Shown here piece by piece: positions 1-6,952 of a stretch of 9,784 bases of DNA. The stretch lies in NCBI GenBank assembly GCA_937897495.1, contig CALCBL010000217.1, positions 1 to 9,784 of the forward strand, written 5' to 3'. How positions within the stretch are numbered: position 1 is the stretch's first letter; the number at the start of each line of letters is the position of its first letter. The position numbers were made by a program, and so were the translations under genes. The notes below the pieces were generated by a model. The model was not told the origin of the DNA and did no database searches. It saw only the letters and a program-made list of their open reading frames with translations. The stretch comes from an uncultured Burkholderiales bacterium (GTDB taxonomy: Bacteria; Pseudomonadota; Gammaproteobacteria; Burkholderiales; Burkholderiaceae_C).

Positions 1-31
1 GCTCCGAAGTGGCTTTAGCTTTGGTGGTCAT
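1..31 (-). CDS. Start of a Phe-attenuated gene, probably DAHP synthase (partial)
   Basis: Only the first ten codons are inside the window, reading M-T-T-K-A-K-A-T-S-E, and the gene runs off the left edge. The start is well supported: the minus strand carries AGGAG six bases before the ATG. It lies directly behind an intrinsic terminator and a phenylalanine-rich leader peptide, so its expression should respond to charged tRNA-Phe. Genes controlled this way in proteobacteria include Phe-sensitive 3-deoxy-7-phosphoheptulonate (DAHP) synthase, chorismate mutase/prephenate dehydratase and pheST. I favour DAHP synthase, the first step of the shikimate pathway, partly because I recall this gene lying next to tldD in Comamonadaceae. 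The ten visible residues alone cannot prove the product. Confidence 0.5.
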   Translation of the reverse strand, partial: MTTKAKATSE

Positions 32-37
32 CTGGTG

Positions 38-42
38 CTCCT
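38..42 (-). promoter_or_regulatory. Shine-Dalgarno site of the attenuated gene
   Basis: The minus strand reads AGGAG here, six bases before the ATG at 31-29. It is the best ribosome binding site in this part of the window. It lies downstream of the terminator, so the gene can be translated only when transcription reads through. Confidence 0.75.
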
Positions 43-81: not shown

Positions 82-115
82 AAAAAAAAACCGCCGGGGG
101 TTGAGTCCGGCGGTT
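82..115 (-). terminator. Intrinsic terminator of the Phe attenuator
   Basis: On the minus strand a perfect 9-bp stem forms from AACCGCCGG (115-107) and CCGGCGGTT (97-89), with a 9-base loop at 106-98. A run of Us follows directly, from the nine As at 82-90 of the plus strand. A GC-rich stem followed by a U-tract is a textbook rho-independent terminator. It sits between the leader peptide stop and the ribosome binding site of the next gene, not after that gene, so it is an attenuator. The same site could also end transcripts from tldD. Its 5' arm is the sequence captured by the antiterminator. Confidence 0.92.
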
Positions 116-158
116 GGTAGAGGGGTTCAGTGACTTATGCGCTGGCCTCTCGTCCGCC
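109..158 (-). promoter_or_regulatory. Antiterminator of the Phe attenuator
   Basis: On the minus strand GGCGG (158-154) can pair with CCGCC (113-109), and AGAGG (150-146) with CCTCT (123-119). Together they form a two-part stem split by a small internal loop. CCGCC is the core of the terminator's 5' arm, so this fold and the terminator exclude each other. The upstream half lies inside the leader peptide coding sequence, just after the Phe codons. A ribosome stalled early at Phe codons leaves it free to pair, whereas a ribosome that reaches the stop codon covers it. Pairing was found by eye and no folding energy was computed. Confidence 0.75.
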
Positions 159-209
159 TAGGACAGAGAATGCAAAATAAAAGCTAAAAGAGCTAATGCG
201 CTTGGTCAT
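135..209 (-). CDS. Phenylalanine-rich attenuator leader peptide
   Basis: This 24-codon minus-strand reading frame runs from ATG at 209-207 to TAA at 137-135. It begins M-T-K-R-I and continues with SSFSFYFAF, so residues 8, 10, 12 and 14 are Phe (TTT, TTT, TTT, TTC) and residue 11 is Tyr. Four Phe codons in seven positions, followed by alternative hairpins and a terminator, mark a sensing peptide like E. coli PheL, not a working protein. Translation speed through the Phe codons would report the level of charged tRNA-Phe. The Tyr codon could add minor tyrosine sensitivity. No Shine-Dalgarno sequence precedes the ATG, and a possible -10 element ends only eight bases before it, so the message may be leaderless. 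The peptide is too short for standard gene callers. Confidence 0.88.
   Translation of the reverse strand: MTKRISSFSFYFAFSVLGGREASA
147..168 (-). promoter_or_regulatory. Pause (1:2) hairpin of the Phe attenuator
   Basis: On the minus strand CTCTGTCC (168-161) can pair with GGAC (155-152) and AGAG (150-147), leaving one bulged G at 151 and a five-base loop at 160-156. That makes eight base pairs. The 5' arm begins in the last Phe codon of the leader and the 3' arm uses the bases that build the antiterminator. This is the expected place for the 1:2 hairpin, which pauses polymerase and, when the leader is not translated, blocks the antiterminator. Confidence 0.65.
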
Positions 210-217
210 GGAGATCG

Positions 218-226
218 AATGTAGCA
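218..226 (-). promoter_or_regulatory. Possible extended -10 promoter of the Phe leader
   Basis: The minus strand reads TGCTACATT at 226-218, a TGn extension followed by a -10-like hexamer TACATT. It lies in the 61 bases between the tldD stop and the leader ATG. A start point six or seven bases downstream would fall on or next to the leader ATG. No good -35 box is found at 16-18 bases: a TTGTCA lies at 251-246 but the spacing would be 22. This is a prediction from the sequence only. Confidence 0.35.
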
Positions 227-270
227 CAAGTTTTTGGCAGATTTCTGACAATTTACAGGCCCCAAGGCAT

Positions 271-6106: not shown

Positions 6107-6952
6107 ATGGACTCCTATTGCGTTTTCGGCCATCCCATTGAACACAGCAAGTCGCCTTGGATTCAAGCGCGGTTTGCCGAACTCACAGGTCAAACACTGC
6201 AGTACGAAAAAACCTGGGTGCCACTCGACGCTTTCAACGCCACCGTTCATGCGTTCAGGGCTGCTGGCGGCAAAGGCTGCAATGTCACCTTGCCTTTTAA
6301 AACAGAGGCCGCCGCGCTGGCCACTGAATGCAGTCCCCGCGTGGCATTGGCACAGGCCTGCAACACCCTCAAATTTGATGGCGAACACATCTACGGTGAG
6401 AACACCGATGGCCTAGGCTTGGTGACCGATTTGGTCAGCAATGCTGGTTTCTCATTGCAAGGTCGCCGAATTTTATTAATTGGCGCAGGCGGCGCATCAG
6501 CGGGTGTGCTGGGGCCCTTGTTGGCTCAAAAACCGCAATGTATTTGGGTGGCTAACCGAAGCGTTGACAAAGCAATTCACCTTGTCGCAAGGCATGCCAG
6601 CTTGGCTGCATCAGAAGGCGTAGATTGCCAAGCCTTTGGCTTGACCCACGAAGCCATTCTGAGCCAGTCCTTTGACTTGGTCATCAACGCCAGCAGCAGC
6701 AGCCTTCAACAAGCGGCATTGCCCGTGCCCGCCACAGTGCTTCAAGCCAATGGCTTGGCCTGCGATTTGATGTATGGCCCAGCAGCGCAAGGCTTTCTTG
6801 AATGGGCCCGTGCGCACGGCACCGAAGCGCGCGATGGTCTTGGTATGCTGGTCGAACAAGCAGCGGCTTCATTCCAATTGTGGCGCGGCGTTCAACCACC
6901 GACCCAACAAGTGCTGGCTGAATTAAGGGCCTTGGTCTCTCCTTCTCAGTGA
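6107..6952 (+). CDS. aroE: Shikimate dehydrogenase (NADP+)
   Basis: AroE reduces 3-dehydroshikimate to shikimate with NADPH, the fourth step toward chorismate and the aromatic amino acids, in the cytoplasm. The 281 residues match the usual length of about 270-290. The substrate site is seen as HSKSP at 13-17, NVTLPFK at 59-65 with catalytic Lys65, and ENTDG at 98-102 with catalytic Asp101. The nucleotide fold follows with GAGGAS at 126-131 and NRS at 150-152, which places the NADP phosphate-binding Arg at 151. The C-terminal helix carries GLGMLVEQAA. The gene starts 12 bases after the TonB-like gene and its stop is one base from the mtgA start, so translational coupling with mtgA is likely. 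Its shikimate role links it to the Phe-attenuated gene at the window's left end, though they are on opposite strands and separately controlled. Confidence 0.96.
   Translation: MDSYCVFGHPIEHSKSPWIQARFAELTGQTLQYEKTWVPLDAFNATVHAFRAAGGKGCNVTLPFKTEAAALATECSPRVALAQACNTLKFDGEHIYGENTDGLGLVTDLVSNAGFSLQGRRILLIGAGGASAGVLGPLLAQKPQCIWVANRSVDKAIHLVARHASLAASEGVDCQAFGLTHEAILSQSFDLVINASSSSLQQAALPVPATVLQANGLACDLMYGPAAQGFLEWARAHGTEARDGLGMLVEQAAASFQLWRGVQPPTQQVLAELRALVSPSQ

What the first reader, a model, noticed from the sequence alone, without database searches (positions are those of the whole stretch)
82..209. Complete phenylalanine attenuator, unannotated by gene callers
Seen directly on the minus strand: a 24-codon leader peptide with F-S-F-Y-F-A-F, an 8-bp pause hairpin (168-147), an antiterminator (158-146 with 123-109) and a 9-bp terminator with a long U-tract (115-82). 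All overlap exactly as classical attenuation requires, then come a strong ribosome binding site and an ATG. Known attenuation logic (E. coli pheL-pheA, trpL) predicts read-through when charged tRNA-Phe is low. The inference is that the downstream gene is Phe-controlled, probably DAHP synthase.
Basis: partly seen in the sequence, partly recalled or inferred. Interest (0 to 1): 0.8.

Follow-up and report, generated by a model that had tools for sequence, protein, structure and literature searches.

The report
Phenylalanine attenuator controlling aroG
In front of what its relatives show to be the gene for the first enzyme of aromatic amino acid synthesis, this Limnohabitans-like bacterium carries a short phenylalanine-rich reading frame followed by RNA segments that can pair in two competing ways, which likely act as a switch that would turn the gene up when phenylalanine runs short.

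Summary
Observation confirmed: minus strand 209-82 holds a 24-codon leader (MTKRISSFSFYFAFSVLGGREASA), a 1:2 hairpin, an alternative 2:3 pairing and a 9-bp terminator with nine U. Interpretation supported. The contig ends 10 codons into the next gene, but in relatives that gene is a class I DAHP synthase, AroG. The leader stands directly before aroG in 73 of 73 aroG-bearing tldD loci, eight of them with an ORF between tldD and the leader, and in 40 of 70 sampled aroG genes of the order (2 of 7000 shuffles). Strand 2 is read in all three frames while its RNA is kept, and one position covaries over strands 2, 3 and 4 (C-G-C 61, T-A-T 13 of 99; 25 depart, the window among them). Phe codons are nearly fixed; Trp is common in relatives but labile. 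Additions: an extended -10 element ends 6-8 nt before the leader AUG (77 of 103), predicting a leaderless leader mRNA; leader-bearing AroG have the Ser recalled for Phe-sensitive enzymes, while nine Gly-type copies lack the leader. No Rfam family matches. Regulation is untested. A new member of a known kind.

The parts
218..228 (-). Extended -10 promoter-like element TGTGCTACATT, ending 8 nt before the leader AUG; predicted start of a (near-)leaderless leader transcript
   Evidence: Sequence; TGnTAnnnT ends 6-8 nt before the AUG in 77 of 103 leaders, mononucleotide-shuffle rate 0.3%. Promoter function is inferred; the simple -35/-10 scan lists no promoter in 1-1500.
135..209 (-). Leader peptide ORF, 24 codons plus TAA, MTKRISSFSFYFAFSVLGGREASA; four Phe and one Tyr codon
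161..170 (-). Strand 1 (UUCUC-U-GUCC), includes the last Phe codon
146..158 (-). Strand 2 (GGCGGACGAGAGG): pairs with strand 1 (pause) or strand 3 (antiterminator)
107..123 (-). Strand 3 (CCUCU 123-119 and AACCGCCGG 115-107): pairs with strand 2 or strand 4
89..97 (-). Strand 4 (CCGGCGGUU), second arm of the terminator
82..90 (-). U-tract of the intrinsic terminator (nine U)
38..42 (-). Ribosome binding site AGGAG of aroG
   Evidence: Sequence
1..31 (-). Start of aroG (MTTKAKATSE..., class I DAHP synthase); the rest lies beyond the contig end
   Evidence: Resembles the start MITKAKVTSEP... of the L003 protein, NCBIfam aroFGH/AroG; the window is the whole contig G000:C217
271..1731 (-). tldD, upstream neighbour used to find relatives; not part of the switch
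   Evidence: Pfam PmbA/TldD domains

Best explanation
This is a predicted ribosome-mediated transcription attenuator of aroG (DAHP synthase), in which a ribosome held at the clustered Phe (and Tyr) codons of a short leader would mask strand 1, let strand 2 pair with strand 3, and so likely keep the terminator from forming. When charged tRNA-Phe is plentiful the ribosome would run on to the stop codon, interfere with strand 2, and strand 3 would pair with strand 4 to terminate after the U-tract. Shown: the ORF, the mutually exclusive pairings, their conservation, a three-strand covariation in other families, and the link to aroG in relatives. Inferred: translation of the leader, stalling, read-through, and a start of transcription at or within about 2 nt of the leader AUG. 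Phe is likely the main input; Tyr is a likely second input; Trp, present in many relatives' leaders, is replaced by Ala in this clade.
For: Leader and terminator next to tldD in 68 of 80 tldD loci; 8 of the other 12 have them directly upstream of aroG after an intervening ORF. So 73 of 73 aroG genes found in those loci have them (72 of 73 by the detector; the last, L069). 40 of 70 aroG upstream regions of the order, in 12 of 26 families; same detector 2 of 7000 dinucleotide shuffles, 1 of 70 reverse strands, 0 of 8 second DAHP synthases of the family. Base before GGYGG in strand 2, partner in strand 3, base in strand 4: C-G-C 61, T-A-T 13 of 99. GGYGG of strand 2 lies in frames 0, 2 and 1 of the leader in 66, 30 and 3 of 99. 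In 53 in-frame leaders of 55 distinct stretches, anchored on the last Phe codon, the codon two before it is Phe in all and the next one upstream Tyr in 51 (TAT 31, TAC 20). With 209-160 masked and strand 4 not yet made, 2:3 forms at -16.7 kcal/mol; the free full-length RNA gives 1:2 plus terminator at -38.7. The 24 leader-bearing AroG among L084-L113 all have Ser where E. coli Phe-sensitive AroG has Ser.
Against: No expression data. At equilibrium the terminator wins even with strand 1 masked (-25.1), so the switch must be kinetic; before strand 4 is made the free RNA prefers an extended 2:3 pairing (-24.8) to the pause hairpin; with an assumed footprint of -14 to +16 a ribosome at the stop codon leaves GGCGG (158-154) free, and a 2:3 helix remains until strand 4 appears (-15.1) (all). 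In the window's clade the covarying base of strand 2 is a mismatch (A-G-C, 16 of 99, mostly that clade), so its 2:3 helix has only 5+5 pairs; 9 further cases of the 99 depart from C-G-C and T-A-T, and 4 leaders were unresolved. 30 of 70 sampled aroG upstream regions had no such leader by the detector (one of them, L150, has a weaker candidate). In L057 the last Phe codon is Leu.
Confidence: 0.9

Rival explanations
1. A general aromatic sensor (an extension of the best explanation rather than its opposite): shortage of Phe, Tyr or Trp would each stall the leader ribosome and open aroG, with the Trp input dropped in the window's clade.
For: Trp codon in 29 of 47 distinct leaders of the tldD loci (window included) and 22 of 40 of the order sample; Tyr in 44 of 47 and 38 of 40. 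In family leaders the Trp codon lies just before the last Phe codon, next to strand 1.
Against: Trp is labile: TGG 35, GCA 12, GGA 6 of 53; 6 changes on a quick AroG tree, at least 4 forced by starred branches. Phe is never below 3 in the order sample, whereas Trp is absent from 18 of 40.
Confidence: 0.4
2. The hairpin at 115-82 is only the terminator of tldD and the small ORF is fortuitous.
For: It follows tldD and folds as a strong intrinsic terminator.
Against: A conserved promoter-like element lies between tldD and the ORF. The element stays with aroG when another ORF intervenes. Phe/Tyr codons and a competing strand 2 are conserved.
Confidence: 0.03
3. Besides acting in cis, the terminated RNA of about 127 nt or the peptide acts in trans, as reported for rnTrpL/peTrpL of Sinorhizobium meliloti.
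For: Similar predicted leaderless layout (PMC7298713, passages).
Against: The peptide's tail is not conserved as peptide: strand 2 is read in three frames. No target was sought.
Confidence: 0.1

Closest known systems
E. coli pheL-pheA attenuator (recalled)
   Same: Phe-rich leader, 1:2/2:3/3:4 logic, intrinsic terminator upstream of an aromatic biosynthesis gene
   Different: Controls aroG, not pheA; leader often mixes Phe, Tyr and Trp; predicted leaderless start; no Rfam family matched
Sinorhizobium meliloti trpLE(G) attenuator (PMC7298713, passages)
   Same: Attenuator of an aromatic pathway gene whose transcript begins with the leader ATG (stated there, predicted here)
   Different: Trp leader, alphaproteobacterial, different gene
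Putative attenuators before the DAHP synthase-tyrA operon of Vibrio (PMC1173090, Table 7 passage)
   Same: Predicted attenuator ahead of a class I DAHP synthase gene
   Different: Tyr-inhibited enzyme in an operon with tyrA, gammaproteobacterial; leader and structure were not seen or compared here
Multi-amino-acid leaders such as ilvGMEDA and thrABC (recalled)
   Same: More than one kind of regulatory codon in one leader
   Different: Branched-chain or Thr/Ile codons; here Phe with Tyr and, in relatives, Trp

Membership tests
Ribosome-mediated transcription attenuators (amino acid leader peptides) | Short ORF with a cluster of codons for the pathway's product | tested here: met
Ribosome-mediated transcription attenuators (amino acid leader peptides) | Mutually exclusive antiterminator and intrinsic terminator | tested here: met
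   in the window's clade the 2:3 helix lacks the covarying pair
Ribosome-mediated transcription attenuators (amino acid leader peptides) | Regulatory codons next to strand 1, stop codon near strand 2 | tested here: met
   Last Phe codon 170-168 is part of strand 1; the stop at 137-135 lies 8 nt after strand 2; with the footprint assumed it covers strand 2 only in part
Ribosome-mediated transcription attenuators (amino acid leader peptides) | Downstream gene makes the sensed amino acid | tested here: met
   AroG in relatives; only its first 10 codons are in the window
Ribosome-mediated transcription attenuators (amino acid leader peptides) | Read-through rises on starvation; premature 3' ends in replete cells | not testable with these tools
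   Needs RNA data
Described Rfam families (leader families such as Phe_leader, name recalled) | Covariance-model match at gathering score | tested here: not met
   0 matches in the window, none convincing up to E 5, none at the leader in 11 relatives (one tRNA elsewhere)
Leaderless leader mRNAs (S. meliloti trpL type) | Transcription starts at the leader AUG | tested here: inconclusive
   -10-like motif 6-8 nt before the AUG in 77 of 103; 24 of 103 lack the motif, 2 have it 13-14 nt away; no start site mapped

The most novel reading that the evidence does not exclude
A betaproteobacterial aroG leader family works as a leaderless aromatic OR-gate: want of Phe, Tyr or Trp each opens the entry step of the shikimate pathway. 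The window's clade, for which this gene is the only DAHP synthase found, has cut the Trp input, so Trp starvation would no longer open the pathway.
Probability: 0.35. Interest if true: 0.6.

Novelty: new member of a known kind. Interest (0 to 1): 0.45.

Why it matters
It would give a mechanism for control of the first step of aromatic synthesis in a large group of bacteria, and it links a Phe leader to the DAHP synthase copy that looks Phe-sensitive while the Gly-type copies examined lack one. Natural variants with and without the Trp codon, and with three reading frames over the same RNA strand, make input logic and leaderless start directly testable. No Rfam 15 family matched it.

Tried and rejected
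The only PF00793 hit in the own genome (C63) lies between genes that read as pyrG and eno and looks like KdsA, not a second DAHP synthase (names by reading sequence and gene order). Three weak model hits in other genomes of the genus (L183-L185) look like terminators beside ribosomal protein genes without a leader (by eye); the other weak hits were not looked at.

I tested whether loss of the Trp codon goes with lack of the Gly-type second enzyme. Among 36 genomes at least 90% complete with a leader: W with paralogue 15, W without 7, no W with 1, no W without 13, Fisher p 4e-4. Independent pairs on an AroG tree do not support it (median p 1; 3 pairs on starred branches, 2 among genomes at least 90% complete), so I do not claim it.

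A first control on paralogue upstream regions ignored strand and was redone (0 of 8). The strand finder returned nothing for 36 of 139 inputs, among them leaders seen (L004, L036, L064, L078, L106, L132, L134); the strand and promoter counts (99, 103) rest on its 103 successes, the prevalence counts.

Literature: searches listed no paper that I recognised as describing this element (listings only, except the papers named with passages). Subscription journals are not held, and Merino's attenuator database (mentioned in PMC1173090) and older comparative surveys (recalled, not seen) may list it, so I do not claim first description. Search 55, for the Ser/Gly residue, gave nothing that I used.

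Full report
What is in the window. The window is a complete contig of a draft genome (G000:C217, 2.7 Mb, 682 contigs). Its tldD product is 98-99% identical to those of Limnohabitans sp. MMS-10A-178 and two Comamonadaceae MAGs. The minus strand reads tldD (1731-271), a promoter-like TGTGCTACATT (228-218), a 24-codon leader with four Phe and one Tyr codon (209-135), hairpin strands and a terminator (115-82), AGGAG and an ATG at 31-29. The contig then ends, and the rest of the gene was not found in the assembly: an AroG query finds no match in G000.

The downstream gene. In relatives a similar start (MITKAKVTSEP... against MTTKAKATSE...) opens a 374-residue class I DAHP synthase (L003): TIGR00034 aroFGH is above its cut-off, and the AroG model NF006723 is the best hit though below its cut-off (548.8 against 568). 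E. coli Phe-sensitive AroG is among the best solved relatives.

Conservation with the gene. Of 80 tldD loci, 68 have leader and terminator next to tldD. Eight of the other 12 have another ORF after tldD, and the leader then stands directly before aroG. The remaining four (L025, L037, L048, L080) hold no aroG in the fetched stretch; L048 ends inside a leader. So all 73 aroG genes found in these loci have the leader (72 by the detector; L069). Three leader loci (L004, L036, L075) end before aroG. In the genus, 56 of 60 genomes have a strong hit of the model built from these leaders (E below 1e-20). The other four (two weak hits, two none) also lack a full-length match to this AroG; two of them have a full-length match of 53-54% identity, the second type.

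Across the order. 239 of 300 genomes have a match to AroG. I read 70 upstream regions: the 30 loci of that call, which are its best matches, and 40 more fetched over families from its listed places. 40 of 70 have an aromatic-rich leader with a GGYGG-type terminator, in 12 of 26 family codes. The same detector fires on 2 of 7000 dinucleotide shuffles and 1 of 70 reverse strands and on 0 of 8 second DAHP synthases. The detector demands this stem, so other leader types could be missed; the sample leans to close AroG relatives.

RNA or peptide. The 3' half of the leader ORF is strand 2. Its GGYGG core lies in frame 0 in 66, frame 2 in 30 and frame 1 in 3 of 99 resolved leaders; the peptide tails differ accordingly (for example PGGREASA, PLAEG, SPRRS), while the RNA core is the same. 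The base before GGYGG covaries with its partner in strand 3 and the matching base in strand 4: C-G-C 61, T-A-T 13. The other 25 of 99 are A-G-C 16 (mostly the window's clade), T-G-C 3, C-A-T 2, A-A-T 2, G-A-T 1 and T-A-A 1; four leaders were left out as unresolved. The sequences are related, so these counts are not independent events. By my reading, T-A-T occurs in six family codes (f4, f10, f12, f22, f31, and f43 through L150, which the detector does not count) and C-G-C in six others (f1, f3, f9, f11, f19, f39).

Codons. Counting back from the Phe codon that forms part of strand 1, in 53 in-frame leaders (of 55 distinct stretches, rows without TTCTC there, such as L057, being dropped): position -1 is TGG 35, GCA 12, GGA 6; -2 is Phe in all; -3 is Tyr in 51, split TAT 31 and TAC 20. 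Phe is present at least three times in 45 of 47 distinct leaders of the tldD loci (window included) and 40 of 40 of the order sample; Tyr in 44 of 47 and 38 of 40; Trp in 29 of 47 and 22 of 40. On a quick DNA tree of 40 AroG genes of the genus the Trp/non-Trp state needs 6 changes, at least 4 of them forced by starred branches. Phe thus looks like the fixed input and Trp like an optional one.

Start of the transcript. TGnTAnnnT ends 6, 7 or 8 nt before the leader start in 16, 38 and 23 of 103 leaders, against 0.3% in mononucleotide shuffles; 24 lack the motif and two have it 13-14 nt away. With usual sigma-70 spacing (recalled) this puts the start at or within about 2 nt of the AUG, so the leader would be a leaderless mRNA. 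Most of the 103 are from the window's own family. Some leaders of other families (for example L100, L101) have their likely -10 farther away by eye. S. [quoted passage not shown]

Which enzyme. Eight of nine genomes of the family have a second class I match, and 7 of these 8 show Gly in place of Ser at one site (HAFMGMTKMG against HHFLSVHKNG; L161 is different). E. coli Phe-sensitive AroG has Ser there. That this site decides Phe against Tyr sensitivity is recalled, not taken from a call. Of the 30 AroG loci L084-L113, 28 have Ser and 2 Gly; the 24 with a leader are all Ser, and both Gly ones (L096, L108) lack it. Four Ser genes also lack it (L093-L095, L111). In the window's clade, seven genomes (G300, G305, G311, G318, G329, G334, G340) and their sister G332 have a single class I match, and no class II enzyme was found in any of 16 genomes searched, so this gene would gate the whole pathway there.

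Mechanism and its weak points. With 209-160 masked and strand 4 not yet made, the RNA forms 2:3 (-16.7); the free complete RNA forms 1:2 plus terminator (-38.7). But the terminator also wins at equilibrium with strand 1 masked (-25.1), the free RNA before strand 4 prefers an extended 2:3 (-24.8), and a ribosome at the stop codon with an assumed footprint of -14 to +16 leaves the GGCGG core free (all). The switch must therefore work by timing during transcription, as in classical attenuators (recalled).

Literature. Searches listed nothing that I recognised as this element. PMC2965389 (outline, abstract and passages) has no occurrence of aroG, DAHP or phenylalanine in its main text. PMC1173090 (passages) tabulates putative attenuators of operons with tyrA; the rows shown include a Bordetella operon and, in Vibrio, operons that begin with a DAHP synthase gene, which is the nearest precedent seen. 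Rfam 15 has no match in the window or at the leader in 11 relatives.

Verdict.

Noticed in passing
window 228-218, strand -: Extended -10-like element at 6-8 nt from the leader AUG in 77 of 103 leaders, predicting a leaderless leader mRNA.
   Followed up: yes
window 173-171, strand -: Ala codon GCA where most relatives have Trp TGG and some Gly GGA; the state changed at least four times in the genus on a quick AroG tree.
   Followed up: yes
genomes G300, G305, G311, G318, G329, G334, G340 and sister G332: A single class I DAHP synthase and no class II, while many other genomes of the genus have a second copy of about 54% identity.
   Followed up: partly
L093, L094, L095: Close AroG orthologues directly behind a tldD-like end without the leader, in small genomes of 1.7-2.1 Mb.
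   Followed up: no
L071, L072, L074, L077, L081: A gene whose start reads like RPFFAGARDT (AzlC-like by my reading) between tldD and the aroG leader.
   Followed up: no
window 6107-6952, strand +: A second shikimate pathway gene, shikimate dehydrogenase (aroE), lies in the same window; the leader model has no further strong site in the genome.
   Followed up: no
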